A DNA stretch of 64,000 nucleotides, taken from NCBI RefSeq assembly GCF_001649575.2, contig NC_051430.1:32342849-32406848 (forward strand). Reading direction: 5' to 3'. Positions 21,101 to 45,188 of this stretch are shown here, one piece after another. The first letter of the stretch is position 1; each line of letters begins with the position of its first letter. The stretch is from Kryptolebias marmoratus (lineage: Eukaryota; Chordata; Actinopteri; Cyprinodontiformes; Rivulidae). A program made the translations under genes and the position numbers. The notes below the pieces were generated by a model. The model did not search any database. It worked only from the letters and a program-made list of their open reading frames with translations, and was not told the origin of the DNA.

Positions 21101-24100
21101 CACCTGCCACCTTTTATGCCAGAGGTTTAGACTAAGATCATCTTACAGAGCTGTTGGCATTGTGGTCGAACCTTGAAGAGAACATCTCAAGACTTTGTGT
21201 TGGAGATCAGTCTTAGCTACTACAACTCCATATTTTGCTCCTTATTCATATAATGAATCAGAAAGACAAACTCACGCACACAGACGTAAGCAAAATGATT
21301 TGACAGCAGGTGATATAAAGTACTGGGTGATTGAGAAGAACCTCCTTCACAGAGAAAAACAGGAAGAACAGTTTGCCACAGAGCTGTTCGACAGCTGCTC
21401 AGCCTGAGTTTCCCTGGGATTTATTCTTATTCAAGCACATATTCTAGGACTTATGGTAATGGATTTTAAGCTTCACAGCTTTTTCAGCATTTACGGTACA
21501 CGGCACCTTGTTCTTGGCCGCAGGTTGTCAATACGAGAAAACAGATGTCACGGGATGAGTTAGTAATCACAGTATAAGTTGGGGATCAGTCTCAGCTACT
21601 ACTATACCAAACTTGAGCTCAGTATCTTTAAAACTGACTGATTTATAATCATTTCCATGTTGGCTAAGGTTGCAAATGTGGTCATCAGGAACTGGGCTGA
21701 CTCCAAAAGTTAATCGGTTGTAGATGTGAAATTAATGATTACTTTCTGAGAGTTTCATTCAAATCTGTCCAGTGGTGGAGAACAGACAAACATCCATTTA
21801 TCGGCAGGTAATAATGACAGCAAAGGAGTTTACAGGAAGTGCATTCTTCATGCACAAACTTGCATTGAAGAGTCTCAACTTCTACTTTAACCGTATTACT
21901 GCCCAACCTGCCTGTTTGTTTTAACACGGCTGTGGGAAAAAAAAGAAGTTCTTGATGATCTACAACAGCAGTGGAGAGTGAGAGGTGGATGTATGGAAAA
22001 CCAAATGGGTCAAACACCATTAATGTCTAATACACATTAAATATGTCCCCAGGACCAACTAATTCAGCTTTACATAACTTTATTTACAACTTTTTCTCAG
22101 AGAAATGCTTTAAGATCTGTTCAAATCTTTAAAAAATTCTGCTCTTTCAAAATCTCATTTTCAGCTTTTGGCAACAATTTTGCTAATTTGAGGTTCTATC
22201 TACTGTTTTTAGCTACTGTTCTGTTGATTTTCAATTTTAGTTACCATATTTTCTGGACTATAAGGCGCACGGCAAGCGGACCTGAACAAGTGGTGTAAGC
22301 TTTTATACTTCGCTTACATCGGTGCAGTATTCTTCTGTGAGTTTTGAGCCATCTTTGTGATCTCTCTAAATGCTGATACAGGCAAACCAGCTCCGCTAGA
22401 GCACCAAAATCGTCCATTTCGATCGGCGCGGGGCACGCGCCATCCGCACGAAGTTACAAAAATTAAGAGGTGAACAATGATGCGCCTTATAGTCCAGTGT
22501 GCATTATATATTACAAAAGTACGAAAATGGACCATTCATTGACAGTGCATCTTATAATACAGTGCACCCCAGTTTAGGTCAAATTAACTGAAACAAACAT
22601 TTTTGTACATTTAGTTAAAAAAAGACATGGCTTGTAGAAGACTGTTTAATATGATTTATCTGTTTTCTCATTACTTTAACGTATAATGATTATTATTTTT
22701 TAAGGGCAATTTAGTTTACAGATTTCATAATCTGCACTGTTTTGGTTGAATGTAGTTTTTCATTTCCATTTTGTTTGTTTTGTTATATTTAGTTTTTATT
22801 CAAGTGCATTTTTTGTTAATGGAGACATAGTTCATTTTATTTTTATTTTTGGTTGTTTTGTTTATTTTGTGTTCCAGTTCCAGTGTTAAGTGCTTAAAAC
22901 GGTCTCCAAACAATATTATCGTTTATCGCATTAATTTTCTGAGACAAGTAGTTGGGAACCTGTTCACTGAATTCATTCTTTATTTTGTATGTACAGTTAA
23001 AAAATTTTAAAAAACAAATAGGGACATACCTTGAGTATCGCTTCCAGGGTCATTTGTACGATCTGAATGCAGAAGAACAGGAAAAAAATTGTCAAGTTAC
23101 TATTTGTGTAAAGCTTTGTTGTCTTCATATTTATTGTAAAATAGAAACCTTTAGAAGCAGAACTAAATACACTGCTTAAATGACAGTGTAAATAAGCATA
23201 AAAACATGAAAACCTGTCTATGGTCTTATGTGTATGTTTATTTACACTATTAACACATTCTTTTTTTCAAAATGTAGAAAAAAATCATTTAGTTTTTTGC
23301 GATTTACTTGGCCATGCAATTCCCTTTTTATGTCATGTTTTATTTAGATGGATGTGTAAAAGATGAAGATCAATACTTGACAAAAAATCTGCTATCAGTA
23401 GGGGGAAAAGCCATAGTTAGAAATTGGCTTTAGGCTGATGCACCTACCTACCTACTGGACTGTAATTATTGATGGTATTAATTAGTAAAAGTCTAGGAAC
23501 TGAGACCAGCTACTGCAGTTTTTGCCATAGATACTAATGCACCCCCATACCATCAGAGACAGGTGCACTGATAACAGGCCCAGATGATCCCTTTCCTCTG
23601 TAGTACGAAGGATGTGGTGTCTCTGGTTTCCAAAAACAATTTATTTGGATTCATCTGACCACAGAACAGTTCTCCTCTTTGCTTCAGTAAATGGACTTTG
23701 ACCCAGAGAAGACAGCAGCGTGTCTTAATGATCTTCACGTATAATGAACTGTTTACAAACAATGATCTGTGGAAATGTTTTTCACTTTTGTTATTGTTGT
23801 CAATGATATTTTTCCTTTGACTGTTTCTGTATTTCTTTTCATGTGAGCTGATGTTGAAATGTACATATCCTGAAAATGTAACTTTCATAAATTTTGAACA
23901 ACATGAACATTTCTTTTTTTGTAGTTAAGAACCTGTTCACTGAATTGATTCTTTTTTTTGTATGTACAATTAAAATAATTAAAAACAAAAAACAAATAGG
24001 GACATACCTTGAGTATCGCTTTCAGGGTCATTTGCACGATCTGAATGCAGAAGAATAGGAAAAACATTGTCAGGTTACAACTTGTGTTGAGTTTTGTTGT

Positions 24101-27100
24101 CTTCATATTTATTGGAAAATAGAAACCTTTAGAAGCAGAACTAAATACACTGCTAAAAAATAAAGGGAACACTTAAACAACACAATATAACTCCAAGTAA
24201 ATCAAGCTTCTGTGAAAGCAAACTGTCCACTTAGGAAGCAGCACTGATTGGCAATCAGTTCCACGTGCTGTTGTTCAAATGGAACAGACAACAGGTGGAA
24301 ATTATTGGTAATTAGCAAGACCCACTCAATAAAGGAGTGGTTCTGCAGGTGGGGACCACAGACCACTTCTCAGTACCTAAGCTTTCTGGCTGATGTTTTG
24401 GTCACTTTTTAACGTTTGCGGTGCTTTCACACTCGTGGAAGCCTNNNNNNNNNNNNNNNNNNNNNNNNNNNNNNNNNNNNNNNNNNNNNNNNNNNNNNNN
24501 NNNNNNNNNNNNNNNNNNNNNNNNNNNNNNNNNNNNNNNNNNNNNNNNNNNNNNNNNNNNNNNNNNNNNNNNNNNNNNNNNNNNNNNNNNNNNNNNNNNN
24601 NNNNNNNNNNNNNNNNNNNNNNNNNNNNNNNNNNNNNNNNNNNNNNNNNNNNNNNNNNNNNNNNNNNNNNNNNNNNNNNNNNNNNNNNNNNNNNNNNNNN
24701 NNNNNNNNNNNNNNNNNNNNNNNNNNNNNNNNNNNNNNNNNNNNNNNNNNNNNNNNNNNNNNNNNNNNNNNNNNNNNNNNNNNNNNNNNNNNNNNNNNNN
24801 NNNNNNNNNNNNNNNNNNNNNNNNNNNNNNNNNNNNNNNNNNNNNNNNNNNNNNNNNNNNNNNNNNNNNNNNNNNNNNNNNNNNNNNNNNNNNNNNNNNN
24901 NNNNNNNNNNNNNNNNNNNNNNNNNNNNNNNNNNNNNNNNNNNNNNNNNNNNNNNNNNNNNNNNNNNNNNNNNNNNNNNNNNNNNNNNNNNNNNNNNNNN
25001 NNNNNNNNNNNNNNNNNNNNNNNNNNNNNNNNNNNNNNNNNNNNNNNNNNNNNNNNNNNNNNNNNNNNNNNNNNNNNNNNNNNNNNNNNNNNNNNNNNNN
25101 NNNNNNNNNNNNNNNNNNNNNNNNNNNNNNNNNNNNNNNNNNNNNNNNNNNNNNNNNNNNNNNNNNNNNNNNNNNNNNNNNNNNNNNNNNNNNNNNNNNN
25201 NNNNNNNNNNNNNNNNNNNNNNNNNNNNNNNNNNNNNNNNNNNNNNNNNNNNNCAGGAGTTGGTGGATGCTTTAGTCCAGGTCTGGGAGGAGATCCCTCA
25301 GGAGACCATCCATCACCTCATCAGGAGCATGCCCAGGTGTTGTAGGGAGGTCATACAGGCAGGTGGAGGCCACACACAATACTGAGCCTCATTCTGACAA
25401 GTTTTAAGGACGTTACATCAAAGTTGGATCAGTCTGTAGTGTGTTTTTCCACTTTAATTTTCCATTGATGATTTTTCTGTGAATCTTTTGTCAGCACATT
25501 TACCTTTTGTACAGAACAAAGTATTCAATGAGAATACATTAATTCAGATCTAGAATGTGTTATTTGATTGTTCCCTTTATTTTTTCGAGCAGTGTATTTT
25601 GCCACTGCATTTTCAAATCTTTTAAAAGTAGACACATTAGATCAGCATCTCTTTTTATGGGACTTTATTTCAACCTGGAGAGACTCACACGGAGAGATAA
25701 AGACAATTAGAGTGTTTTATTGGTTAGAGGTCTTTGGCGCTCGGGCCCCGGCAGAAGACGATTTTGCAGAGAACTGCTGTGAGCTTGAATGATCGAAGTA
25801 GGGTGAGAGATTAGGGTAGTCATCCCCCGAGACCCGGACCTGGTGGTGGCGTAGAGGACGAGGAAGGGGAGTCCAAAGGAGCATACGAAGGAGGGTGGAG
25901 ATCGGGGAGGCGGTGGGACGAGACTTGGCTGGCGAGCAGGAGGAGCCGTGGATGGGGAGGCTTATATCCTGCACCTGGATGCGATTTGACAGCTGGGAGC
26001 AAGGATCCGAGATGAGAAATGATGGACAGCTGGGTGAGTCTGCCAGGCTGAAATTTCGGCTAGCCTTCACTTCTTCCCAGTTATTAGTGGAAATGCAGCT
26101 GAATTCATGGTAGTTTACTGTAGCTTCTGCAGTGAATTTAACATCACGCAGAATCACAACTGAAAAGCAGACATGTGCTTCTGATTAGAGTCCCGTGGCT
26201 TTTTTATTTCCCTCCTTTCTTTGTGTTTTGTCTTTTTTTTTTTTTTTCCCTTCTGGAACAACAACTAATTACTTCCATACTTTAACAAAACATCAGTCCA
26301 GAAACACAAAACCAGGCTGTGTCTGCTTCTTCTTATAAAGAAGCAAGAAAGTACATAACACTCTTTACTCTCTCTACTCTTCATATTTGTATTTATTGCT
26401 GTTATTAATCTGTGATGGGTTTTTTTCTTCCCATAGAAACTGCATCTGGACCACTCCTGTGTATCTGTGTCTTTTTCCTGTCCTCTCAAAGCTGCCGTCT
26501 GCCCCTCCTCCTGAGTCCGGTTCTGCTGGAGGTTTCTTCCTGTCAAAAACGAGTCAATCCTTTCTACTCTCATCAACTTTGATGTTCAGGATATGGGACT
26601 GTAACAAAGTGAAGATTTGACTCAATCTGCTGGCTTCCTTAGATAGATTTTACCAATTGGCATTTCTTAATAAACTGCGCTTTATTGAGGACAGGAGCTA
26701 CAGACGCAGAAATGAAACCAAACTGGTTAGTTAGCATCTTCTGATGTGAACCAGGCTACATGCAATCAATCAGACCTTTTGATGGCATCTGATGAAGCAG
26801 GTGATGCTTCAACCCACTGCAGCAGCAGACAAATTTCAATTTAAACATGGAAATGTTTAATATACTGCTGAGGTCTTACTTCCTGAGCGACCCCCATCAG
26901 GTTTGTAGTCTCCGGCTCCTACTTCAAATAGGTCTGAGTCATCAAATGTTCCACCGCCTGGAAGAAATAATCCATTTCAGCTTTACATCACAATCAATTT
27001 CAGGCGGACATTTAGCTCAGGACACGAGGACACCCCCTTCACTATCACCACTGCCACACACTCATCTTCCACTTGGGACCAAACTATGTTATCAATGTTT

Positions 27101-30100
27101 CCTGGTGACATTGTTAAGGTTAGGGTTAAATTTCTTTAACTGTGTACATAAAAGCCGCCTGAATGAATAAGAAAAATTCACCTCCTCCTCCCTTTGGTGG
27201 AACAATAGCAGGCTTGTCAGTTTTGGCATTGGGGTCTGTGGACACAAAGAAATCAAAAATGAATACAGCAACTTATGTGAATGAAAACTGGAAGAGAAGT
27301 GACATTTTCTGTGAAAACAGTATGAATGCCGAGTGCTGAGGTGTTAAAGTTAAAACAAGTGGAATGGAGACTAAAATGATCAAAATACAGGCTGAAATGA
27401 ACATAACAGAGGCTAATATAAGTAGAACACATGCTACAGTGAGCAGAATGCAGCGTAAAATGAGCAAAACAGGGTAAATCAAGTAAAACAAAAGGCTGAA
27501 ATGAGCAGATAATGAGCTAGAAGGAGCAGAGCACAGGCTAAAACAAGCAAAAGAGGATAAAATAAGCAAAATACAGGCTAAAAGTAGCAGAACAAGCTGA
27601 AAACTCAAATAAGGTAGGACAACTGTAGCAGAACAGTAGCTAAAATTAGCAAAGCGGATGCTAAAGCTAATTTTGACTTAGCATTCACACTAATAGAAGC
27701 AACAGACATTTAAGTGGTTTCCAGAGGTGTAGAGGTCTCAGATTTACCAGGTTTGAGGGCATCCTCCAGATCAAATCTAAAGTCATCTGTAAGAGAAACC
27801 CCAGAGGGTCAGTTTACCTGCATAATCCACCTGCAGGGAGAACTTTTTACATGTTCTCCTGAATTATAAAGTGAAGGGAGCAGCCAAATGTCCAAGAATC
27901 CAACTTACCAAAACCTCCAGAACTTGGTTTCTTGGGTTTTTCAGTTGCCGGGTCATCTACAAAAAAAAAGAGTTCTGATTTAAATAATTAGCTGAATAAA
28001 GGAGCTCTTTACTGTCATGCATATCTAATAATATGATACTCCAGTCATAAAGCACTTAAATACAGTGGGTTCCAAAAGTATCACCCCTTGGTAATTATTT
28101 CTCATTCTTTGCCATATAATCTGGAATTTAATTTGTTTTTTTAATTTGACTCCAAGTAATAATTTTGCACAAAATACTTCCAAATAAATGAGATGAAAAG
28201 GAGAAAAAAACTTACATCCAAAACTTGACTGGTTTAAGGAGAAGCAGTTAAGGTTCTGGAATGATCCAGTCAAAGTTCAGACCCGAGTTCAACTGAGAAT
28301 CTTTGGTTTCTCCTATTAAACTTGATCCATTTGAAGTATTTTGTACCTTGCTGAATATTTCTGCAGCCCACTATATTTATTCAGTATATGCGTAGGCCTA
28401 AAAAGGTGACTGGTATTTTACCTGGTCCAAATGCGTCCGAAAGGTCTAATTCACCTGTAAAAGGGAGAAAAATGAACACAAACATGAGTCTAGAGGGAAA
28501 CAGCTTTAAGCTACCGTTTTGGTAGTTTTCACTTTTCGTCACAGTTTTGCTAATTTAAGCTTTTGTCTGCGGTTTTGCTAATTTAAAATTGTACCTACTG
28601 TTTTGGCTATTTTAAACTTTAAATTACTTGTTTTCGCAAATTTAGGTTTTAGCTAAGGATTGGCTAATTTTAGCTTTTATCAATGGTTTTGCTAATTTAA
28701 GTTTTTAGATGGTGTTTTGCTAACCTTAGCTCCTTGGCTTGTTTAATTTGAACAATTCACCTAACAAATTTCCAGTAAAGTCATTCAGCATTTACATTGA
28801 ATTTTTGCAGAAAATGGCATTGGACTCATTGTTTATTTTTCTTTTGTACAGTGCCCTGAGATGACTTGTTGTGAATCGGTGCCACATACATAAATTTCAA
28901 GTTTAATTCAGCAGAGTTCTTCAGGCTCTCTGTGGGTGGATTCGGCACCCGTCACCTCCTAAGTTTGAAAAATGCCAGCTCCTGATAGGTGGATGTGAAA
29001 CCAGCGTTATGTTCTGTAATGGCTCCTCCTTCATCTGCTGCAGCCATTGTGCCTAAAGACACTCGAAGCTTCGACACTTTGTACACGCCAACTCAATGAC
29101 TCATTTTACATTCTAGTGAGAAATGTTAAACCACATCAATTCAATCTGTTCACTGTGTCCAACACTACAACTTCAGGCTATTAACAAAGCCCTCCTGCCC
29201 CTTTCCTATCAGGTCTAAGGACGAGACTGATTACATAAATGAAATCAGATGAAGTGTTTTCCTGTTTCCTAACAGACTAAATGTGTTTTAGGTGGTTCAA
29301 CCAAAGAATGAGTTTATGTTTTAGATTTTCACATGCACTAAATTTGTTTTAGATCAGTGGTTCCCAAACTACGAAATATCAGCAGAAAAGACTCGTGACC
29401 CTGACTAGTTTTGGTTGGACAATGGAAACTTTGCTATTAGGTCAATTAAACAAAGACTTTAAAGACAACTACAACTTGAATATTTCTTATCAACTCCTAC
29501 TTTTTTATCTCTTGGAACAACTATTTAATATAAACTGAACTAACTAAATTGTTAAAGTTAAAACAAACAGAACAGGCTAAAACCAGCAAAACAAAAGCTA
29601 AAAACTAAAATCAATAAAACCACAATTTAAAAGATAAAAATAGCAAAATGGTAGCTATTAGTCCAAATTGGTAAAACTAAACCTTAAAGCTAAAATAAGC
29701 AAAACAGTATCTAAAAGCCAAAATTAACAAAACAACAGCTAAAAGCTAAAACTAAATTATTTTCAAAAATGCAATGAAAATGCCAAGTTAGTATAATTTG
29801 CAATAGAAGTGTAGCTAAAATCTAAAACCAGCAGAACAGTAAATAAAGGCTACAATTATATAAATAGTAACTAAAAGCTAAAACTACAAAAACAACATGT
29901 AAAAGCTAAAAATGAAGCAAGTTTGCTGAACTGGAATTCAAAGAGTACAAAGTTTTTCAAGGATTTGAAGAATTCTCTCTTCATGTTAATAAGAAAGAAG
30001 GTACAAAAAGGTGCAAAAATCAAAAGTCATTGCAGTAATGCCCTGAACATGCTGAAGAGTTGTGCTAATAATTAGCATCATATCCAAACAATGGGAAGCT

Positions 30101-32254
30101 AACAGCAACGTGCAAAAATACAAACCGTCTGTTTTAGGTTTCTCCGGAGGCTTTGGCTGCAATTTTGGAGGCGGCGTAACTAAAAGTAAATAAATTAGGA
30201 TTATTACAGTGCGTTTGTTGAAATAAAAGTTACCAAGTATGAGTGTAAAAAGTCTTAAGTGCTTCAGAGATATGCTCACCTACATCATCGAAGGCATCAG
30301 CCAGGTCAAACCCTGCAGCAGGAGAACAAAAAGAACTTCAGTCACAATTCAACAGTTTAAAATAAAACTAAAGACCTGGCACCTTTCAAGGTGTTTTAGA
30401 CTAAAATCATCTCATGGTGAGAAATGAGGGAGTCCGACTTTGAAAATAATGTTATGCACGATCTCAGAATGTCCCTCTTAGACTATGTGTTGTGAATGAC
30501 TCATAGTTTCTGCCACACCAGATTTAAGCTTAATAGCTCTAAAATAGAGTTACAGCCATTTTTTTATTTGTTTAAGGTCAGTTGGCTGTGGTAGCCATCT
30601 TGAATTAGGTTGACTCCAAACGTTAATTGTAGATGTACAGCCAGTAATTACTTTCTGAAAGTTTCATTAAAACCCATCCAGTAATTCGTGAGATATTTTG
30701 CTAACAGACACACAAAGCCACACAGATACAGGCTACAACACTACTGCCTGCCCTCGCATTTCAGTGGTGCAGGATCAAAACAGCTAAAACCACATAGCTT
30801 CATCTCCTTCTACTGCTGATGGGTGCAGGATGGCCAGAAGGACTGCAGCTTCTGTGGTCACAGACGTAAAACTCCGACATGGAAGGAATTCTGAGAGGCC
30901 CCGGAGAAGGACTTCTGGTTTTAAAGATAAAGCTGCTGCTTCACATCAGATGGAGTCAGCTGAGGTGGTTCAGACACCTGATTAGGGAGGAGACCCTGGG
31001 ACAGTTTCAGAACTCACTGCAGGCCAGGACTTTGGAATCCTCCAGGAGGAGCTGGATGGTGTCACTGCGTAAAAGGAGTTCTGGGTGTTCCTCCTGGAGA
31101 CCCCGTTGCCTCGGTGATACAACCACAGATAAGAGGAAGAAGTGGAAGCTCATGTGCGTCGTTATTGAAAAACAGGAAGTCTTACAGTTTGTTTGACGGT
31201 TACCATGGCTGCATTCTCATTTCCAAAAATAAACCATGGTTTAGACCATGGTTTATTTTAAATACTCTGGGGTTTTGCCATAGTTCCAAAAACTTTAACC
31301 CACTCTGAGATTAAATTGATGATTCACAGCTCGATAAAAACAGAACAAATTTCAGGTGGATTCAGCTTCACCCACCACAGGCTGATTCTGAATTCCACAT
31401 TAATACGGAAACACAGAAGAGGATTAGGGCCAGAGTCATTTTTTTATTTTTAAATCCCCATAATTCTGACTTAAAACTCACAATTTTGAGAAAAAAAAAG
31501 TTTTGTCACTGTTGTCCTGATCATCTTCAGTAAATAAATGTTCTGAACGGTCAAAAATATACAAATTCAATTTGTAAATGCAGTATATTTCTGTGAGAAA
31601 ATGCAGACTTGCAACATTACTACAACACTCGTCCTTCTTAAGGATGCAGCTGCTGCTGAGCTCCAACAAAACCATCAGATCAGCCTTTCACACCTCAGAT
31701 AAACTCATCTGAGGGATTTTATCAAAAAGAGAAACAGGCTTTCAAAATAAACAAAAAGAAACAGATCGACCAGTGATTATTTAAAAATAAAAAATTGCAC
31801 CTCTGCTTTTAGATTTCAATGAGTGAAGTTAACGAAAGAGCGTGCCACATCTTCTGCACGCCTCCAAGCCTGCGGTTAACCAACTCTATCTCTGCATGTA
31901 CTACAGAAACCTCCTGCAGAGGTTTATCAAGAGTCAAAACTGAAAATCTGTTTAAACTAAAAACAAAATCGAAATTGCCCTAAAAAAAACCCCAGCTATA
32001 CACAGAGCCATCTCTCTATTATATATAGTTCTGAATAAAGTTTGGAGCCAGCCTACCCAGCTCAATATAGCTGGCACTGCCATTTAAACCTAGGAAACAC
32101 CAAAATGGTTAAAACTCAGTTCATTTTACAAATACTGAGCTTAGAATTGGTGTGGCTGAGCGGGATAATCTCGCGATAATACATGAGATCGCGGGAACGT
32201 GACGGAGAAAAACTTTAATAACAGAGTTAAATTCTCACCCACACACACACAAAT

Positions 32255-32308
<54 letters not shown>

Positions 32309-32586
32309 AACTTGCAGCAGAGAGGTTTGCTTGTTTGATGCATTATACAAACAGTTTTACTTTTCTGCTCAAATTGACTAAAATCTTGTTATTCACAAGA
32401 ACTTCAAAAGCGTCCCACCTTCCTGCCGGCGGAAGCTGTAATTACCCTAAAAGGGCAGTCCACTAAAATACACACCGTGACCATAACGGAGGCATTAGAC
32501 AACCTATAGTTGTGTCGCTTACCGTCTTGTGTTGAGCTTCCAGGAACAAGAAATAGGAGTAAAAGTGTCCCCAAACAGAACTTCAT
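15185..32586 (-). CDS. cd99: CD99 antigen, single-pass acidic/proline-rich adhesion protein, 13 coding exons
   Basis: Cell-surface sialomucin-like protein; in mammals CD99 acts in leukocyte migration and adhesion. Coding exons: 32586-32523, 30312-30280, 30179-30126, 28454-28422, 27956-27909, 27786-27748, 27235-27182, 26957-26880, 24040-24008, 23062-23030, 16099-15989, 15899-15846, 15219-15185. Every intron is phase 1, giving 222 residues. Seen: signal peptide (1-19, MKFCLGTLLLLFLV core); repeated acidic blocks GFDLADAFDD, GELDLSDAFGP and DDFRFDLEDALKP alternating with proline/lysine linkers; a GGTFDDSDL block (about 109-117); transmembrane segment about 161-182; then QKKKLCFK, nearly identical to human CD99 AYQKKKLCFK; short cytoplasmic tail ending QSDRT. 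It is longer than human CD99 (185 aa), partly through an extra duplicated stalk exon. Start chosen because ATG at 32586 opens the only signal peptide and splices in frame. Upstream sequence is GC-rich without an obvious TATA box. Confidence 0.5.
15989..16099 (-). CDS. cd99: CD99 transmembrane exon
   Basis: A 111-nt phase-1 exon holding the whole membrane segment (residues about 161-182) and the basic stop-transfer/endodomain motif QKKKLCFK. This is the most conserved part of CD99 and the main reason for the identification. The acceptor is ...ttgaag and the donor gttcgt, which is a weak donor. Confidence 0.5.
16881..16881. other. Single ambiguous base
   Basis: One N in an A-rich, CA-repeat-bearing part of a CD99 intron. 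Confidence 0.5.
16953..17160. repeat. Two CA microsatellites
   Basis: (CA)n tracts at about 16953-16976 and 17131-17160 in the intron before the CD99 transmembrane exon. Confidence 0.5.
18060..18560. repeat. Interspersed repeat (gagatattttgctaacag / gatggccaccacagcc family)
   Basis: Contains motifs shared with 21480-21800, 30480-30760, 34560-34700, 39120-39560, 47945-48190 and 51800-51960: a sentence-like order of tggctataactcagtcagtt, a gatggccaccacagcc block, and ccagtggttcatgagatatt. Noncoding; class unknown to me. Confidence 0.5.
18958..19384. mobile_element. Teleost DNA transposon fragment interrupted by a MITE
   Basis: 18958-19130 belongs to a family with taatttgcaaatctcctaaa and cagcaacacatcttaaa. 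Directly adjoining is a 247-bp MITE, about 19138-19384, with inverted ends acagaccctttccaaaaa and its complement. Related ends of the first family occur at 37169-37530, 43110-43200, 44875-44942 and 63768-63858. Confidence 0.5.
19456..19659 (+). pseudogene. Possible transposon-derived SANT/Myb-like ORF remnant
   Basis: A 67-residue frame with FLWTDEKELLFYVTKCRT and a SSKYGDMLDTF segment resembles the Myb/SANT-like N-terminal modules of some teleost transposases. No continuation, splice partner or start context supports a host gene. Low confidence. Confidence 0.5.
19855..19925 (+). mobile_element. LINE 3' end fragment
   Basis: tgtaaagcactttgaactgc ... aaataaatttgacttgact matches the 3' end of the LINE at 59165-59640 (tgtaaagcaccttgaaatgc ... 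aaataaaatttgattgatt). A related tail with gatggatgg follows at about 20195-20265. Confidence 0.5.
20426..20665 (-). other. Unrecognised open reading frame
   Basis: A minus-strand frame of 79 codons contains the protein-like stretch ADPDHKWGQVLKMLYANMPE followed by FFVWMSNLKQVLTPLLERVQ. I cannot assign it. No clear splice sites were found around it; it could be a decayed retroelement or retrocopy. Confidence 0.5.
20800..21110 (+). repeat. SINE-like teleost repeat
   Basis: Characteristic order: attcagttcaaattcagaac, tcacctcagggcactgtac, cccatcctgagcagcacatt, ggaagaaacctccagcagaa and a cagaac tandem. A fuller copy is at 47391-47935, a minus copy at about 26430-26680, and a head fragment at 34795-34870. 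Confidence 0.5.
22240..22570. mobile_element. DNA-transposon MITE (ggactataaggcgcac family)
   Basis: Begins near accatattttctggactata and ends with inverted, partly decayed copies of the same motif. The same family is embedded in the element at 5675-6325. Lies in the large CD99 intron. Confidence 0.5.
23030..23062 (-). CDS. cd99: CD99 stalk exon, duplicated copy A
   Basis: A 33-nt phase-1 exon (acceptor ...ttcag, donor gtatgt) adding 11 juxtamembrane residues (DRTNDPGSDTQ). It is the near-twin of the exon at 24040-24008 and differs at two residues (A to T, E to G). Both copies keep intact splice sites and frame, so both could be used together or alternatively. It lies just before the transmembrane exon in transcript order. 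Confidence 0.5.
24008..24040 (-). CDS. cd99: CD99 stalk exon, duplicated copy B
   Basis: A 33-nt phase-1 exon coding NRANDPESDTQ, with the same acceptor and donor context as the exon at 23062-23030. The surrounding ~230 bp of intron is duplicated too (23921-24154 versus 22948-23176). A Tc1 transposon begins at the outer edge of this copy. Confidence 0.5.
24146..25596 (+). mobile_element. Tc1/mariner-type transposon, nearly full length
   Basis: Bounded by TA, with inverted ends CACTGCT..aataaagggaacac and gttccctttatttt..AGCAGTG. The plus strand after the gap codes the transposase C-terminus (ELVDALVQVWEEIPQE .. RSMPRCCREVIQAGGG, 25254-25385, stop TGA). The middle (24445-25253) is N. It sits against copy B of the duplicated CD99 exon block. 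A minimal remnant with the same ends (TACACTG..CAGTGTA, 23168-23190) sits at the edge of copy A. Confidence 0.5.
24445..25253. other. Gap (809 N) inside Tc1 transposon
   Basis: Unresolved bases; the transposase catalytic core is hidden here. Confidence 0.5.
25669..26060 (-). mobile_element. Related LTR-like repeat
   Basis: Shares the terminal block with the elements at 5043 and 41257 (minus-strand reading: AATAAAACAC ... gtgagtctccaggttgaa) but its middle has diverged, with a gatataagcc TATA-like site. A short fragment of the same end is at 2577-2605. Lies between CD99 exons 8 and 9. Confidence 0.5.
27300..27690. repeat. AGCTAAAA-array repeat in CD99 intron
   Basis: Degenerate units such as agctaaaacaagcagaacag, with the family's opening block (gaatgccgagtgctgaggtg). 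One of more than ten copies in the window; other clear ones are at 3780-4060, 28510-28740, 29560-30040, 38000-38740, 50340-50600, 52450-52880, 55340-55440, 56330-56600, 58770-59120 and 60190-60420. Confidence 0.5.
28062..28376. mobile_element. Decayed DNA-transposon MITE
   Basis: Begins tacagtgggttcc and ends with an imperfect inverse (cagcccactata), TA at both borders, ~315 bp; no coding. Confidence 0.5.
30780..31160 (+). mobile_element. LINE 3'-terminal fragment
   Basis: aagctgctgcttcacatcag .. agctgaggtggttcagacac .. ctgattagg is the 3' region typical of an abundant teleost retroelement; frames are broken. Confidence 0.5.
32257..32304. repeat. (TA)n microsatellite in CD99 intron 1
   Basis: About 24 TA units, preceded by a short CA tract. 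Confidence 0.5.
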
Positions 32587-37168: not shown

Positions 37169-37530
37169 AAACCCTAATTCAGACAAAGATGTAAAATGTA
37201 AACTATCATGTACAAATCTCATAAACTCATATTTTATTTAAAATGGAACATATTCAATGTATTAAACACTGAAAGTAAGAAATTTTTCCTCTTTTTAGTT
37301 GAGTCATGAAAAAAGGTAATAATGAATTTATTACCATCTCTTTAACATTGCTCCAGGGTGAATTTAAATAAAAGATGAATTTTAATTTTCTTTCTAAAAC
37401 TGGAACAATATCTTAGTTTAAACATTTGATATGTGGCCTAAATATGGGTTTATGAGATTCTGAAATCATTGCATTTTGTTTTTATTTATATTTTACAAAA
37501 CATCCCAGCTTTTTAAGAATTGAGGCTGTA
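37169..37530. mobile_element. MITE of the taatttgcaaatctcataaa family
   Basis: Left end aaaccctaattcagacaaag and right end cttttaagaattgaggctgt are imperfect inverted repeats; internal catattttatttaaaatgga is typical of this teleost family. Lies just downstream of the CD99-like stop codon (37611), in its 3' flank or UTR. Confidence 0.5.
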
Positions 37531-37610: not shown

Positions 37611-37711
37611 TCAGGATGAATGTTTAGCAACCAGCTGCTGCAGCAGATGCAGCTCCTGATTCTGGTTCTCAATGACTTGGATTAGCTTTTGGACCACACA
37701 CGGCGGGCAGT
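37611..37711 (-). CDS. CPPC/coiled-coil terminal exon of the CD99-like gene
   Basis: Last coding exon (acceptor ...cctcag, stop TGA at 37613-37611), 33 codons with the stop. It codes D-C-P-P-C followed by an amphipathic helix rich in Leu, Ile, Val and Gln (LIQVIENQNQELHLLQQLV) and ends AKHSS. CD99 has a transmembrane exon at the corresponding place. No helix-breaking residue occurs after the PP pair, and hydrophobic residues recur at 3-4 spacing, as in a short coiled coil. Confidence 0.5.
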
Positions 37712-40700
37712 CTGAGGGAGGAGGAAATGCTTTGTAAGTTTTAAAATGAAAAATGCTGATGCATTATTCACACTAATGTTTGCTAGTTTATAGTTTATTT
37801 TGTAACCTAATTATTTATACATACTTTGTGCTATTTTAACCTTTCATCAATAAAAATGTTTACCTTGATCAGGAATAGTGACTTTTGGTTTTGGTAATTT
37901 TTATACTTTATTTATTTAAACTTTAGTTACAAATATTTTACCCACAGAAATGCTGTGAGCTCTCTTCTATTCCTTCGAACCCATTGATCTGTTTCAATTT
38001 ACTGGCTCTAGTTTTGTCTTCTTATGCTAACTTTAGCTTTAAGCTACTAATCTGTTACTTTTAGCTACTGTTTTGCTAATTTTAGCTACAGCTCTGCTAC
38101 TTTTAGCTTTCAGCTACCATTGTCCTAGTTACAATTTAACTATTCTGCCACTTTTGTCTTTTAAATACTGTTTTGTTACTTTTCTGTTTTCGCTGTACGT
38201 TGCTATGTTTAGGTTTTAGCTAAAATTTTGTAGATTTTAGCTACAGCTTTACTAACCTTAGCATTGGTTTTGCTGATTTTAGCACCTGTTCTGCTGCTTT
38301 TAGCCTTTAGTTGTAGGTTTGTTAATTTTACCTATTTTTTTCCTATTTTCTTTTATCTTTGGAATCTGTTTTGCTAAATTAAGCTACTTTTAACTGCTGC
38401 TTCGCTGCTTTTGACTACTAGCTTTTAATGTGCTGCTTTTAGCTTTTAGCTCTTGTTCTGCTGCTAGGTTGTGTTCTACTCATTTTATCCTCCTTTAAAC
38501 TCATTTAAGTTCAGTTATGTTCATGTTCACGCCTGTTGTACTCATTTTGGCCTCAGTTCTGCTGATTGTAGTCTCTGTTATGCTTTCTTTAACCTCTTTT
38601 AAACTCAATTAACCTTTGTGTTCATTTTAATCTCTGTTACGTCATTATAGCCTTTGTCCTGTTCTGCTTGTTTTAACTTTAACAACTTAATTTTAGCTTC
38701 TTCAGCAACTTTCAGCAATCATTATATTGCATGTCCACAAAAAATGCTATTTCTGTTGTTAATTTTTGTTGTAGTTCTAAAGATTTTCATAGTGGAAGAC
38801 TTTTATTTCAATGCTATTCTAAAATACACATCAGTTTTATTTCCAGAATAAAGGATAAATAAATTGTAGTAAAGAGATTTTGAGCATGTTGCTGCAGACT
38901 CACCTCCTCCATTGGATTTATCATCAGGTTTCACAGCTGGGGATAAATAAAATAAAACATATGTTTAATCACAGGAAGATACAGTAAAATAACACATGAA
39001 GGGTTAATTGGCCTCTTTGGCTAAGTTAAATATTCAACCGGCTTTTAAATGATCATACATGCAGGAAATGTTTAAAGTTGATATTTATTCTTTACTGTAG
39101 TTGGAGCTGCAGAGATTCCAACTCATGAAATGTACTGTAGATTAAAAGCCGTGTTACTGACATTGTGTACTATTGCAAGCTACAACCACACCAAATTTTA
39201 CTTCAATATCTGTAAAACTGACTGAGTTATAGTCATTTTTGTGTTTTGTAAGATTACTTGGCTATAGCAGCCATCTTGAATCAGGTTGACTCCAAACGTT
39301 ATTAAAATGTAGATACAAAAAATTAATAAAATGCATCCAGTGCTTCATAAGATATTTTGCAAACAGACAAAGAGGTGACTGTAATTAGTAATGAGGTGTA
39401 TGTCTAGAACTCGTTAACTTCTGGAGTCAACCACATTTAAGATGGCTGCCACAGCTAATTGATATTAGCAAACAAAAAATGAAATGGCTATAACTTAGTC
39501 AGTTTTACAAATGTTGAGCTCAAACTTTAGGTGGTTTTAGTTGAAACTCTGAGTGTGACTTCTATACTGCTTTCTGCATCTCATTCAAATATATTCTGTG
39601 TAATTCTTTCAAGTTATCAGAACACAACTGCAGATTTGTCTTCCGTGGGTGGGGAATCATTCATGTGCAAGAAATAACATGTAAAAGTAAAACAAATGAA
39701 AAAAAAGTCTAAACTATGAGTTATTTTCTAACATTTTGGTCAGAATTTTCATAAACTATGTTGTTTTATACCAGAGTTCCAACAGCAGTCTCACCTGGAC
39801 GGAGAGCATCCTCCAGGTTGAATCCAAAGTTGTCTGGAAATATAAAAAAATACATCATACATAACTTATATGGACTTTAAAATCAAATTATAAGGAGTTA
39901 GTCAAAACTTAAAAAGCCACATATTAAAGGAATATTTCAGATCTTCTGAAATGTGTTTCTGTAGAAGTTATAAATAAATAATATCTTACCTGTTGCTGAT
40001 AGCTTTTTAATAAACCCCAGTTTAGAGGAACAGAGTATAATTCTGATAGGGCTGATGAGCCTCCTTACTAAAACAACTATAATCTAAAATATAACTTTAC
40101 CATCGCTGTCAATTACTTAACAGATGATTGGTTTAAATTAGAATCCTATGATTATTTTGGATAGCAACTACTAGCTGTAGGATTTCTGGGTCACTTCCTG
40201 CAGGAATGTCGTATTTCTGCAGTAATAAGCATTTAATGTGAAAATGATGGCACTGTGAAAGTTGAAAAAATAGTGTTTGAATGAAACTGGACTTGATTTA
40301 AGACAATAAAAACCACTTTGGATCAGTTCGTCTCACACAGAACTGTCCAATTCTTGATATCAGGGATCTCAAATAAATACTAGGTATGGTTAGTGATTTT
40401 TAAATATTCGAAGAATTCAAACAGAATTCATACAACCCTCACAACCTCCTTTTTTTTCTTTACAATGACACTTGCTTGTGACATGCCAAGTCATTTCCTA
40501 ACACTGATTTTCAGTCAAAGATTTGAAGAAAAAATCGATAATTATTAACAAATTTGAAGAGGTTTTGCTTAAAATACCTGTCCCTAATGTAAGTATTGTG
40601 CACAAACGGGCTGCCATAGAATGTCTCAAAGCACACAACATATAAGGTAACTTTTACAAGCACTTCTAGTCTCATTTTGCTGCTGCTGTAGATCATGACT

Positions 40701-43700
40701 GGGAAACCATTTCCACACATCTGTGGAGTCTTTCAGCTTCTGTGGTCTGAATCTGAACGTACAGGGTTTAACAAGTATCACTTGTTCATTTATGGTTGCA
40801 TGGATGAATGGATGTGATCACCTGTGTACTTCAGTGTACCCGTGCTAAATGAAGCCTAGGCCTAGGCATCTAATCGCTGCATCGAGCACCTCCACTCCAG
40901 CCCTTCAGCATCCGACCGCGCCTCCAGCGTATCCAATCAGCGAGCAAGCCTTCGTTTAAAAGGACTTCCATCATGGCCCCATCCGTTCACCGGCCGAACT
41001 TCAACCNNNNNNNNNNNNNNNNNNNNNNNNNNNNNNNNNNNNNNNNNNNNNNNNNNNNNNNNNNNNNNNNNNNNNNNNNNNNNNNNNNNNNNNNGAAAGA
41101 CGCCTCTAATGCTCAACCTGAGCTTCTCCTCGAAGCGCATTGCTATTGTCGACACTCGCGTCTTCCGCCGAGGTCCGAGCGCCAAATATCTTATGTCATT
41201 CATGTCAAATAAAACCATTTAATTGCAGCTTCTCTTTGTCGTGAGTCCAGGTTGAAATGTCTGTAGTGTGACGGTTTGGTACAAAAACACGGACCATTAT
41301 ATCCCCACTTTACACTACATTTCTGCAGCAGGGCTCCCAGGCAGCACTTGAAGTGCTACAGCTAAAAAATGACAGATTTCAGTGTAAATACCATGTCATG
41401 CAAAGCTGATGATGATGTAAAGATTTGTTAAATAGCGTTTGCATGAACCACTCATACATTTTTCTGATTTAATCACAAGATTGAATTGGTCTTAGCTGCA
41501 TTCAGATACCAGTTAGCTCATCAGTCGTGTCTACAACAGGTTAGATGTAAATTGTTTGAAACCTTTCTATAGCACCGCACTTTAAAACGTCTGAACTATT
41601 CTGTTTACTGACACATGGCTAAAGAATTGAACCTGGATTTTTTTATATTTCATTTCTGCTTCATTTCAGTTTGTTTGATTTTTTTAAAGTTGATTTGTTA
41701 GTTTTATGTTTAAGAGGCGGACTCACTTCCTCCAGCTGGTTTGGACGTTTGGCGATCTGAGGAGCAACAGAAAGTGAGACTTTTATTTGTATTTATTTTC
41801 ATTCAAACAGCAGCATGAAACACTGACCAGATCTATTTTTAATCACTACTCATTCATTTGGTAAATGCTTAAAATCTCAAATAATCATTGTCTTAATCTT
41901 AAAACTGAAGCTCACATAATGTTTGACAAAACAGCTACAACACACTTTTTTCAACATAAGATAATCTGTGGCATAAAAGGCAGAGGGCGATATGAATGCT
42001 TGGCTTTTGATTTATTTATGTCTTATCGTTCTACACTGAATAAATTAAAGGAGTTTTACATATAAGAAGTGTTGTTGTTTCACGTGTCAAAGATAAGTTC
42101 ATTTTGACTTATTCTGAAAGAAAAGAGGATTACCTGGTTTCAGAGAACCTGCCTGATTGAATCCAGAGCCGGCTAAATATGAAGACAAAAAAAAAGGTAT
42201 AAATGCACACACACACACACACAGAAAAAAGAAAAAGAAAAAACAGGTAGCAGATAAACACTGAGGTAAAATGGCGGATTAAACTTCAATAAACTCGGTC
42301 CAGTCACCTCTTGCAGTGGGTTTATTTGTGGGTTTGGTCACTGAAGAACCTCCTGTAAGACAGTGGTCAGTTAAAGGAACAGCTCAACAATTTAGGAAAA
42401 ACATTTAACTGTCACCACTATCATTGTTGCCTGCATCAAAAAGGAAGGTGTGTGTGTGTGTGTGGTGGGTATCGGTCTTGCTACAGTTGGAGAAACCTCT
42501 GTAATTCCTCCAGCTGCTTTCACAACTGTCTTCATCATCAATCTGAGTTTTACTCACTGTTACCACGAAGGGTTTCAAACAAATTGATCCCTGTTTGACA
42601 CAGACAAAAAAACACCATGAGCTCCACCGAGCTTTGAGGAATTACAGTTTGTTGCAAAATGTGTGAAATCTGAACGATTATGTTGAAACGTCTCCTTGAG
42701 TCTGAGTTAACCACAGTCACAATAACATAATAAACACAATAATTACAACACGTTCAGGAAAAGAAGCAAAATTACTAAGGAGATCTTGTCTTGTTGGACT
42801 TGTTTATGTCTGTACTATAAACAAAAATAATATTTTTGCCGACTCACCGCTCCAACGCTTTGGTCGGTTAACAGCAAGGTTCTTTAGGGGATCTGTGAGT
42901 AAAAATACATTTGATACTTCAACAAACAGAAACAAACATTAAGAAAAGATGTAAACAGAAACAGAATCTGAGCCAAGGACCTGTGTTGGTCAACGGGTTA
43001 TTACCAGGCAACACAAAAATAATAATAAACTTTTTCTTAAGATGCTTCATAGTGGGAAATATGACCCTAAACAACTTTAGAGAAATGTGTTGCTGCCATC
43101 AAATATAAAGCTATGCATTTTTTTTCTAAAAATGGAACAATGTTCTACTGTAAACGTTTAATAACCAATAAAATATTGATTTGTAAAATATGCAAATCAT
43201 TACCTCTGCCAAGGAGGTTATGTTTTCGGTAGTATCTGTCTGTCAGTGTACTTTACTCCAAAAATTTTAAACAAATTTTCATTCAAATTTCAGGAAACAT
43301 CAACCATGGCACAAGGAACAAGTGAAAAGTTCAAAGTCAAAGGTCAAAGTCCCAGATTAGCCGGTGCTCTAGCTGCAGCTGTACGACAGGAATGGTAAAC
43401 TGCACAGCTGGACACCTCCTGGGTCAAGGGTGATCACTGTTCATTTCAAGGTCAAGGGGTCAAAGGTCAAGGTCACAGGTATCCCCTTATCTATGCTTCT
43501 ACATGTGTCTATTGTTGTTTTTTTTTTGTCTGTCTGTTAGCAAATGTGTCAGTATGACCCGGAGGCCATGAATGCATCTGTTTCTCATTGGCTCTGGAGC
43601 TCGCTGACCAATCTGACATCACACTGTCGCCTTCTGGTTAAACTCCCACGTCTGTCGGTGCTACACGTGGGGTAAGAGGGCCTTTTTACCATCTCATTGA

Positions 43701-45188
43701 ATTTGTTATTTAAAGTATTTTGTGTTCCCTGTCACCACGTAACAGCCATGCGCAAAAGTGCTCGCGCTCGTGCCGTGTGAAGGACATTTGATCTCTTTCA
43801 TGGTAGGGAGTTTCCCCTGTTTTCCATGCGTTAGTTAGCTTAGCTTCAGCTCAACTTCCTGTCATGATGGGTGGAGATGACAGAGATGAACCCAGTGCGC
43901 AGACTCATTTTAAAGAAAGAAAACTCATTTTAATAAAGTAAGAATGAACAGAACAAAACAAAAAGCTGACGAGGCAGCAAACGAATAAAGAACAAACTAA
44001 AACGAGAACAGAAATGCTAACAGGAACAAACAACCAGTAACGACAATGGACAGCGAGGTATGGGAAGAGTGACCGGGTTTTCAACTCTGAGGATAACGAG
44101 GTGAGTGGGAACAGGTGGAACGATTACAGAGTCGGGACAGGTGAAGATGGGCGTGGCTTACAGGCAAGTGAGAGACTGGGGGAGAGTGAATGGTGACAGA
44201 AAACAAAGGCACAAGTAACAAGACCCAAACTAACTGAACATCACTGAAATCATGAAAACAATTAACAAAACCACAAATAAAAACTCAAAACCCCACACTT
44301 CTATTGGTTTGATAGGCCGCCCGTAGAAGTTTGCCTGGTCTCCTGTCATAGGAGCTACATTTTTGGGCTCAAGTGGTAAGAGTAATACTCATTTTTATCA
44401 TTTTTTAAATTTAACTTTGCTGTTTGCCCTTTGCGGGCTTCGGATTTGTTTGTGACACCCAGCTTCAACTTGACATTCTGTGTGCGTCCCGTCTTTTTCT
44501 GTGGCCCTGTTGGTTCATCTCAGCATTGAACGCACCAAGCCTGCTGCTGTCTGGACTGAACTGTTTTTAATCTTTTTGACTTGGGTTCATTTGTGCGTGC
44601 GTTATTTTTCCTATTTTATGCTTTGTTGTTTCTTTTTTTTTTGTTGTTGCTTGCAGAGAGAGAGAGATAAATAAAATATTGTTAAACTCTGGCCCTATCT
44701 GTAATGCATCTGTGTGCCTTAGAGGTGATTTTAAAGTGGGGCTGTTATTTGTAATTTTCTGTGACACACATGCTGCCACACAAAGATCAAGCAAAAACGA
44801 ATCAACAGATTTGGATGAAATGTTGTGGTTTGTCACAAAAAACAATGGTCTAAATTTTAGTGGTTATCCAGATTAAGGTTTGCATTTTGTTTTTATTCAC
44901 ATTTTACACAACACCCCAACTTTCCATAATTAGAGTTGTACGTTAATGTCTGTCATATGTCACTCACCCTCATCCGAGTGTTCCCCCAGATCACTTCCTG
45001 TAGAAGAAAAACACAAGTAGGTTTGCTAAAATAAATTTTCCATCGTGCTCTTGTTTCTTCGTCAACACCTGTTCCTCAGGAAGATTTAGAAAAACTTGCT
45101 GGTTACTGTATCTGCTACTGTAAAGTATAGGAAAATATGTCTTACCTGTTACAACAGTCAGAAACAAAAGGAAGGCGATCTTCATCAT
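37611..45188 (-). CDS. CD99-like secreted protein with CPPC and C-terminal coiled-coil exon, 10 exons
   Basis: I do not recognise a named orthologue. Coding exons: 45188-45146, 44997-44968, 42892-42848, 42590-42558, 42352-42308, 42172-42134, 41756-41727, 39833-39795, 38936-38904, 37711-37611. All GT-AG, all introns phase 1, one 145-residue frame. Seen: signal peptide MMKIAFLLFLTVVTG; short CD99-type blocks (GSDLGEHSDE, GINLFETLRGN, SGFNQAGSLKP, NFGFNLEDALRP) alternating with Lys/Pro/Thr linkers (VTKPTNKPTAR, AVKPDDKSNGG); then a last exon with C114-P-P-C117 and a leucine/glutamine-rich helix (about 118-141). There is no transmembrane segment or GPI signal. NFGFNLEDALRP closely matches CD99 DFRFDLEDALKP, and the gene lies head-to-tail with CD99, so I infer a tandem paralogue that lost the membrane exon. 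The two cysteines plus helix suggest a disulfide-linked oligomer. Start context GCCACCATGA is near-optimal. Function unknown. Confidence 0.5.
40870..41257 (+). mobile_element. Solo-LTR-like element, copy 2 (inverted relative to copy 1)
   Basis: Same family as 5043-5470 in opposite orientation: ccaatcagcg, TTTAAAAGG, then a gap (41007-41094), AATAAAACC and gtgagtccaggttgaa. It lies between exons X7 and X8 of the CD99-like gene. Confidence 0.5.
41007..41094. other. Gap (88 N) inside LTR-like element
   Basis: Unresolved bases in the solo-LTR-like copy at 40870-41257. Confidence 0.5.
42200..42465. repeat. CA and GT microsatellites in CD99-like introns
   Basis: (CA)n at about 42204-42222 and (GT)n at about 42449-42463, on either side of exon X5 (42352-42308). 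Confidence 0.5.
43205..43520. repeat. Interspersed repeat with ggtcaaaggtcaaggtcac
   Basis: ctctgccaaggaggttatgt at the start and repeated aaggtcaaaggtcaaggtca blocks are typical of a common teleost interspersed repeat. No coding. Confidence 0.5.
43860..44300 (-). repeat. LTR-like repeat (aaaacccggtca family), copy 1
   Basis: Read on the minus strand: ccacgcccatcttcacctgt, tccacctgttcccactcacc, then ttgaaaacccggtcactctt. Same order as the copies at 50870-51180 (+) and 51190-51515 (-). Fits a promoter-bearing LTR family, but no internal genes are seen. Confidence 0.5.

What the first reader, a model, noticed from the sequence alone, without database searches (positions are those of the whole stretch)
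37611..45188. Tandem CD99 relative apparently converted into a secreted, coiled-coil protein
Seen: ten GT-AG exons join in one frame with a signal peptide, CD99-like blocks (NFGFNLEDALRP versus CD99 DFRFDLEDALKP) and all introns in phase 1. The last exon codes C-P-P-C plus a leucine/glutamine-rich helix where CD99 has its membrane exon. Known: CD99, CD99L2 and XG are single-pass membrane proteins. Inferred: duplication of CD99, loss of the transmembrane exon, and gain of an oligomerisation tail would give a soluble CD99-type ligand or decoy. I know of no described family with this architecture.
Basis: partly seen in the sequence, partly recalled or inferred. Interest (0 to 1): 0.88.

Follow-up and report, generated by a model that had tools for sequence, protein, structure and literature searches.

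The report
Secreted CD99 twin gene in fishes
Next to the cell-adhesion gene CD99, this killifish DNA carries a ten-exon sister gene with no membrane anchor and a conserved tail predicted to be helical, so its product is likely secreted and would act as a free-floating CD99-type signal or decoy; relatives are listed in other spiny-rayed fishes.

Summary
Ten GT-AG exons (minus strand, 45188 to 37611), all introns phase 1, encode 145 aa with no membrane segment. Two homology searches listed 16 related fish proteins, 15 of them named "uncharacterized" or "hypothetical"; 15 of 16 end in the same predicted-helical tail motif. The ectodomain is related to CD99 (profile score 64.9; best of 100 shuffles 17.4).

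Three corrections. (1) The CPPC is not conserved: 1 of 13 aligned tails, while a single Cys is in 11 of 13. (3) CD99 next door is not always anchored either: besides its membrane exon it has an alternative last exon (20568-20426) coding an unrelated helical tail. This form is identical to database isoform X3 of Kryptolebias marmoratus, and the tail ends 85 of the 120 listed hits to it.

So the locus appears able to make soluble CD99-type proteins in two ways. Secretion, oligomerisation, cleavage and ligand or decoy function are inferred; no expression evidence for this gene in this species was seen.

The parts
45146..45188 (-). Exon 1: start codon and hydrophobic signal-peptide-like N-terminus (MMKIAFLLFLTVVT)
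   Evidence: Kozak context GCCACCATGATG
44968..44997 (-). Exon 2: acidic block (SDLGEHSDE), equivalent by position to the first CD99 acidic block
42848..42892 (-). Exon 3: codes NRPKRWS, furin-type R-x-K-R|W site
42558..42590 (-). Exon 4: INLFETLRGN, the FDxLRGK-like block after the furin-type site
42308..42352 (-). Exon 5: Thr/Pro/Lys-rich linker
42134..42172 (-). Exon 6: AGSGFNQAGSLKP, degenerate CD99-like block
41727..41756 (-). Exon 7: Lys/Pro-rich linker
39795..39833 (-). Exon 8: NNFGFNLEDALRP, CD99-like block; same length (39 nt) and phase as the CD99 exon DDFRFDLEDALKP
38904..38936 (-). Exon 9: AVKPDDKSNGG; the corresponding segment is absent from second isoforms listed for Menidia and Gasterosteus
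37611..37711 (-). Exon 10: terminal exon, DCPPCVVQKLIQVIENQNQELHLLQQLVAKHSS-stop; conserved helix-predicted tail in place of the membrane exon
37481..37486 (-). First AATAAA after the stop codon (candidate poly(A) signal; AT-rich DNA with several such words, so weak evidence)
15185..32586 (-). Neighbouring CD99 gene, same strand; exons 32586-32523, 30312-30280, 30179-30126, 28454-28422, 27956-27909, 27786-27748, 27235-27182, 26957-26880, 24040-24008, 23062-23030, then either 20568-20426 or 16099-15989 + 15899-15846 + 15219-15185
   Evidence: translations identical to database CD99 isoforms X3 (P0017) and X2 (P0018) of Kryptolebias marmoratus
20426..20568 (-). Alternative terminal exon of CD99: helical tail DPDHKWGQVLKMLYANMPEEFFVWMSNLKQVLTPLLERVQDLLQALP-stop, gives a CD99 form with no membrane segment
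15989..16099 (-). CD99 membrane exon (GSGPMAGIISAIGVALVGAASSYFAYQKKKLCFKIQGG)

Best explanation
This is a ten-exon sister gene of CD99, lying in tandem with it and listed in other percomorph fishes, that has no membrane exon and ends in a conserved tail predicted to be helical, so its product is likely secreted and would act as a soluble, probably oligomeric CD99-type ligand or decoy. Shown here: the exon structure, the CD99-related ectodomain, the lack of a membrane segment, the conserved tail, a furin-type motif after the N-terminus in 8 of 14 gene models, and a second membrane-less product annotated for CD99 itself. Proposed working: the signal peptide sends the protein into the secretory pathway (predicted from its hydrophobic N-terminus); furin would cut after R-x-K/R-R, removing the first acidic block and exposing a W-S-G N-terminus (inferred); the tail would pair into a short coiled coil, locked in most species by the conserved single cysteine (inferred); the resulting bundle of flexible CD99-like arms would bind or block CD99-type contacts, which in mammals are reported to work largely by homophilic binding between cells (inferred from reviews of mammalian CD99).
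For: Exons, phases and absence of a membrane segment. Related proteins: 7 at E<=1e-3 among 26 candidates and 16, these 7 included, at E<=0.01 among the 7,990 candidates scored; 15 of 16 hold the tail motif K-L-x-x-[VI]-[VIL]-x-x-Q-x-x-x-[LI]-x-L-L-x-Q. Ectodomain homology to CD99: hhalign score 64.9, E 3.6e-11, against a best of 17.4 in 100 column shuffles and 11.5 reversed. Furin-type motif R-x-[KR]-R in 11 of 17 sequences, equal to 8 of 14 gene models, and in 1 of 120 CD99-type hits, there in an N-terminal extension. Cys at the tail start in 11 of 13. C-terminal helix 115-149 in the Lates japonicus member. a/d positions 81% large-aliphatic against 28% elsewhere. The same segment is missing from second isoforms listed for two distant species, Menidia and Gasterosteus, which suggests real transcripts there. 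Co-location: in 3 of the 5 species for which both this protein and CD99 carry a contig length (Menidia, Toxotes, Epinephelus coioides) the lengths are equal. Homophilic CD99 action: passages of PMC5842202 and PMC12109474.
Against: No RNA evidence for this gene in this species was available, and no deposited K. marmoratus protein for it is among the hits. Coiled-coil evidence is modest (permutation p 0.041; 0 residues with pLDDT 90 or more). Cys is absent in 2 of 13 tails; the furin-type site is missing or altered in 6 of 14 gene models. No signal-peptide or cleavage-site predictor was run. The whole model has low confidence (mean pLDDT 56, pTM 0.20), as expected of a mostly disordered protein. 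No binding partner is shown. In Lates japonicus and Scophthalmus the two proteins carry different contig lengths, so linkage is not shown there. Caranx P0006 lacks the tail (a frame-shifted-looking ending).
Confidence: 0.6

Rival explanations
1. The ten exons are the upstream half of one large CD99 transcription unit: exon 10 is only one of several alternative last exons, and main transcripts splice from exon 9 into CD99 exons including the membrane exon, giving a long membrane protein.
For: All introns in both genes are phase 1 and the genes lie head to tail on one strand, so any such splice keeps frame. CD99 itself uses alternative last exons. A fusion longer than about 254 aa would not have been a candidate in searches (length limit of the tool).
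Against: CD99 has its own start and signal exon at 32586-32523, and the three listed K. marmoratus isoforms begin there; 0 of the 16 related proteins carries a membrane-like segment.
Confidence: 0.12
2. The secreted product is a processed peptide precursor rather than an oligomeric ligand: furin cleavage releases a short protein or peptide beginning W-S-G-x-x-x-F-D-x-L-R-G that is the active part, and the rest is carrier.
For: R-x-[KR]-R|W followed by [FW]-[DE]-x-L-R-G in the members that hold the site.
Against: The only dibasic pair in the window protein is the furin-type one, so nothing would cut out a short peptide at its far end; the tail and the FNLEDAL block are at least as conserved as this segment (56% and 67% mean pairwise identity against 50%), and the segment is missing or reduced in the Scophthalmus and Cynoglossus models.
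Confidence: 0.15
3. A decaying duplicate: a CD99 copy that lost its membrane exon and drifts towards loss, transcribed at most as a non-coding RNA.
For: No deposited protein for this species among the hits, and many percomorph lineages that gave CD99 hits (cichlids, for example) are not among the 16; in Lates calcarifer a CD99-like ectodomain is joined to this tail in a predicted protein (P0016). Absence from the hit list is not absence from the genome.
Against: Ten intact exons with good splice sites and no frame break; the tail is conserved across several percomorph lineages, which needs selection over a long time.
Confidence: 0.1

Closest known systems
CD99 (MIC2), including the CD99 gene in the same window
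   Same: Hydrophobic N-terminus, acidic/proline-rich FxLxDAL ectodomain made of short phase-1 exons; same locus and strand; ectodomain profiles match.
   Different: CD99's anchored form has a membrane exon and a YQKKK motif; this gene has neither, adds an R-x-K-R|WSG...FDxLRGK segment and a different tail.
Fish CD99 isoform X2/X3 (membrane-less splice form with a WGQILKMLNANMPEEFYMWMSNLKQ-type tail)
   Same: CD99-type ectodomain followed by a phase-1 terminal exon coding helices instead of the membrane exon.
   Different: The two tails show no detectable sequence relation: hhalign score 9.6, and 13 of 60 shuffled profiles scored higher; CD99's is a predicted two-helix hairpin, this one a single helix.
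CD99L2 and XG (PBDX)
   Same: The two functional CD99-related human genes besides CD99 named in PMC5842202 (passage); XG neighbours CD99 in human (recalled).
   Different: Single-pass membrane proteins (recalled); this protein gives no PF12301 match.
Secreted proteins with a Cys-flanked C-terminal coiled coil (matrilins, thrombospondin/COMP; recalled)
   Same: Works like them if the tail oligomerises: a short helix next to a cysteine.
   Different: No sequence match of the tail to any solved chain beyond chance (best E 0.84).

Membership tests
CD99 / CD99L2 / XG family | Ectodomain of repeated acidic FxLxDAL blocks related to CD99 | tested here: met
   hhalign 64.9 vs at most 17.4 in 100 shuffles
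CD99 / CD99L2 / XG family | Short symmetrical phase-1 exons | tested here: met
   9 of 9 introns phase 1; CD99 neighbour likewise
CD99 / CD99L2 / XG family | Match to Pfam PF12301 (CD99L2) | tested here: not met
   0 families up to E 10 for the window protein; no PF12301 for P0002, P0008, P0011. P0016 matches through its CD99-like ectodomain
CD99 / CD99L2 / XG family | Single membrane span | tested here: not met
   Hydropathy maximum 0.22 after the N-terminus; no CD99-type membrane exon found between 37611 and 32586, 950-base gap aside
CD99 / CD99L2 / XG family | YQKKK juxtamembrane motif | tested here: not met
   Absent from the 145-aa protein; present in CD99 next door
Furin-processed secreted precursors | R-x-K/R-R site after the N-terminal signal region | tested here: met
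   NRPKR|WSG in the window; 8 of 14 gene models
Furin-processed secreted precursors | Actual cleavage | not testable with these tools
   needs protein
Coiled-coil oligomers | Heptad pattern in the tail helix | tested here: inconclusive
   a/d 81% vs 28% elsewhere, p 0.041, about three heptads with an invariant Gln at one core position; helix pLDDT 74-78 in its middle
Coiled-coil oligomers | Oligomer in solution | not testable with these tools
   only monomer prediction was available

The most novel reading that the evidence does not exclude
The CD99 locus of spiny-rayed fishes is a two-source factory for soluble CD99: CD99 switches between a membrane exon and a helical-hairpin terminal exon, and a dedicated sister gene makes only a furin-activated, cysteine-linked coiled-coil form, together giving natural circulating CD99 ligands or decoys.
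Probability: 0.4. Interest if true: 0.75.

Novelty: new variant of a known kind. Interest (0 to 1): 0.56.

Why it matters
[quoted passage not shown] A conserved gene that codes only a membrane-less CD99-type protein, plus a conserved membrane-less splice form of CD99 itself, would give fish a natural soluble arm of this adhesion system and make the ligand/decoy question testable by ordinary knockout in laboratory fish. None of the titles and abstract openings listed by eight text searches describes either product; the library holds open-licence papers only, the listings were cut at 5-20 papers, and apart from passages of three papers nothing was opened, so a description in print is not excluded. 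Both products do exist as automatic annotations.

Tried and rejected
Transmembrane exon downstream of exon 10: tblastn of 25 CD99 membrane/cytoplasmic tails against the whole window found CD99's own exons at 16.1, 15.9 and 15.2 kb; the other clusters were at noise level, and none of the 14 printed lies between 32586 and 37611. My two earlier exon scans also gave no such exon there, but they missed CD99's own membrane exon because its donor was not in their lists, so they prove little; the hydrophobic-frame scan lists several hydrophobic frames in that stretch, none resembling the CD99 membrane exon by eye.

Common origin of this tail and the CD99 alternative tail: not supported. A known fold for the tails: no useful PDB sequence match (best E 0.84 and 1.3) and one Foldseek match, E 8.7, for the CD99 form; the model of this gene's relative was not searched. 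I first took CD99's alternative tail for its only ending, then found the membrane exon further down. XG orthology was considered because the gene lies between CD99 and sts, but the human order relative to transcription differs (recalled) and no tree was built; left open.
Full report
What was checked. The window is most likely from Kryptolebias marmoratus (mangrove killifish): the two CD99 splice forms translated from it are letter-for-letter identical to the proteins named CD99 molecule isoform X3 and X2 of that species (P0017, P0018). This rests on protein identity; the genome search tool did not complete.

The gene. On the minus strand, ten exons from 45188 to 37611 join in one frame. All nine introns are GT-AG and phase 1, donors match 7-8 of 9 consensus positions, and the start codon has a GCCACCATG context. 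The 145-aa product is MMKIAFLLFLTVVTGSDLGEHSDEDPLKNLAVNRPKRWSGINLFETLRGNRGSSVTKPTNKPTARAGSGFNQAGSLKPDRQTSKPAGGNNFGFNLEDALRPAVKPDDKSNGGDCPPCVVQKLIQVIENQNQELHLLQQLVAKHSS. It has no membrane-like hydrophobic stretch beyond the N-terminus.

It is a conserved family. A search with the single sequence found 7 proteins at E<=1e-3 among 26 candidates; a profile of six sequences found 16 at E<=0.01, the 7 included, among the 7,990 candidates that were scored, a capped set. They come from Fundulus diaphanus, Menidia menidia, Lates japonicus and L. calcarifer, Thunnus maccoyii, Toxotes jaculatrix, Caranx melampygus, Scophthalmus maximus, Cynoglossus semilaevis, Epinephelus lanceolatus and E. coioides, and Gasterosteus aculeatus. 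That these are all percomorphs is my knowledge; I looked up only Kryptolebias, Thunnus and Polymixia. P0002 is named 'CD99 antigen-like isoform X1'; the other 15 are 'uncharacterized' or 'hypothetical'. No K. marmoratus protein for this gene is among them. Caranx P0006 ends in what looks like a frame-shifted reading of the tail and was left out of the profiles; P0016 is a special case, below.

Shared features. Tail: 15 of 16 hold the motif K-L-x-x-[VI]-[VIL]-x-x-Q-x-x-x-[LI]-x-L-L-x-Q; P0006 does not. In 13 aligned tails (the window and 12 of the 16; P0004, P0013, P0014 as second isoforms and P0006 were not used) a cysteine stands at the start in 11, and CPPC occurs only in the window sequence. 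In the best register, a and d positions are I/L/M/V/F in 81% of cells against 28% elsewhere, with p 0.041 when columns are shuffled and all registers allowed: suggestive, not strong. AlphaFold on the Lates japonicus member makes residues 115-149 one helix, pLDDT 74-78 for residues 121-140 and about 60 on either side, the rest low-confidence (mean 56). Furin-type site: R-x-[KR]-R directly before W in 11 of 17 sequences, which is 8 of 14 gene models; it is altered in both Epinephelus and missing in Scophthalmus, Cynoglossus, one Caranx model (P0009) and P0016. It is not a CD99 feature (1 of 120 hits, in an N-terminal extension).

Relation to CD99. Between N-terminus and tail, the family profile (12 rows) matches the CD99 ectodomain profile (42 rows, every second of 84 tail-bearing CD99 proteins) with score 64.9 and E 3.6e-11; 100 column-shuffled controls reached at most 17.4 and the reversed profile 11.5. 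The match spans almost the whole ectodomain, with the KRWSG...FDxLRGK segment as an insert. Pfam PF12301 does not recognise the window protein nor P0002, P0008, P0011. So it is related to CD99 but fails the membrane span, the YQKKK motif and the Pfam test; I call it a derived sister gene, not a CD99.

The neighbour changes the picture. CD99 lies downstream on the same strand, 32586 to 15185. After its ectodomain exons there are two alternatives: a terminal exon at 20568-20426 coding DPDHKWGQVLKMLYANMPEEFFVWMSNLKQVLTPLLERVQDLLQALP-stop, and further on the membrane exon 16099-15989 with two cytoplasmic exons. The database holds both as isoforms of this species. Of the 120 hits listed (165 found) to the membrane-less form, 85 end in this tail (76 by pattern and 9 by eye; P0096 is partial), 34 have the membrane exon, and P0019 has another ending; the query carried the tail, so these proportions lean towards it. 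Hits with the tail reach Polymixia lowei, outside the percomorphs, and Myripristis. In an alignment of 45 of them the tail is more conserved than the ectodomain (72% against 63% mean pairwise identity), and AlphaFold gives two helices, 158-171 and 175-201, with block means of 79-88 from residue 161 on. Two tail-bearing hits (P0036, P0076) come from contigs of 980 and 1,164 bases that hold the whole reading frame; as the gene here has 11.5 kb of introns before this exon, these contigs are most likely spliced RNA (inference).

Are the two tails one invention? Not by sequence: hhalign scored 9.6 with an E of 0.18, and 13 of 60 shuffled profiles scored higher. They share place, phase and helical nature only. 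Either they arose apart, or they diverged beyond recognition.

Tandem order. An exon of sts (steryl-sulfatase, E 5e-34 to PDB 1p49) lies at 54784-55335, so the order is CD99 - this gene - sts, all on the minus strand. Elsewhere I could only compare reported contig lengths: in Menidia, Toxotes and Epinephelus coioides the two proteins share one contig length; in Lates japonicus and Scophthalmus they do not.

A hybrid. P0016 of Lates calcarifer has an ectodomain closely like CD99 of Lates japonicus joined to this gene's tail. It is either a further duplicate in which the tail stands where the membrane exon was, or a prediction error across neighbours; if real, it shows that the tail is exchangeable, as uniform phase-1 introns would allow.

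How it most likely works. Shown: gene structure, conservation, relation to CD99, no membrane segment. Predicted: helix. Inferred: secretion, furin cut, disulfide-linked oligomer, binding or blocking of CD99-type contacts. Two reviews, of which I saw passages only, say that CD99 acts chiefly by homophilic contacts between cells, with some heterotypic partners, and one says that no natural circulating ligand is described for human CD99 (PMC5842202, PMC12109474). A soluble multi-armed CD99-like protein would fit as ligand or competitor.

Verdict. The wider finding is that this locus carries two separate ways to make CD99-type protein without a membrane anchor.

Noticed in passing
window 20568-20426 (-): Alternative terminal exon of CD99 with a strongly conserved, predicted two-helix tail, found in many fish CD99 isoforms X2/X3; not described in the paper listings seen.
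   Followed up: yes
window 24040-24008 and 23062-23030 (-): Two near-identical 33-base CD99 exons (NRANDPESDTQ / DRTNDPGSDTQ) about 980 bases apart with similar flanks: a local exon duplication, both used in database isoforms X2 and X3.
   Followed up: partly
window 25717-26157 (-): A third CD99 ending: isoform X1 (P0019) of K. marmoratus reads into this open stretch after the ectodomain; origin not tested.
   Followed up: no
P0016 (Lates calcarifer): Predicted protein with a CD99-like ectodomain joined to this gene's tail.
   Followed up: partly
P0011/P0014 (Gasterosteus) and P0005/P0013 (Menidia): The same short segment (equivalent to exon 9 here) is missing from the second isoform of both species.
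   Followed up: partly
window 54784-55335 (-): Exon of steryl-sulfatase (sts), matching PDB 1p49 at E 5e-34.
   Followed up: yes
window about 63545 (-): Cys-rich reading frame EALRCNYCFSEGTDLCNPTSIQTCSL that resembles a Ly6/uPAR-type exon (recalled resemblance, not tested).
   Followed up: no
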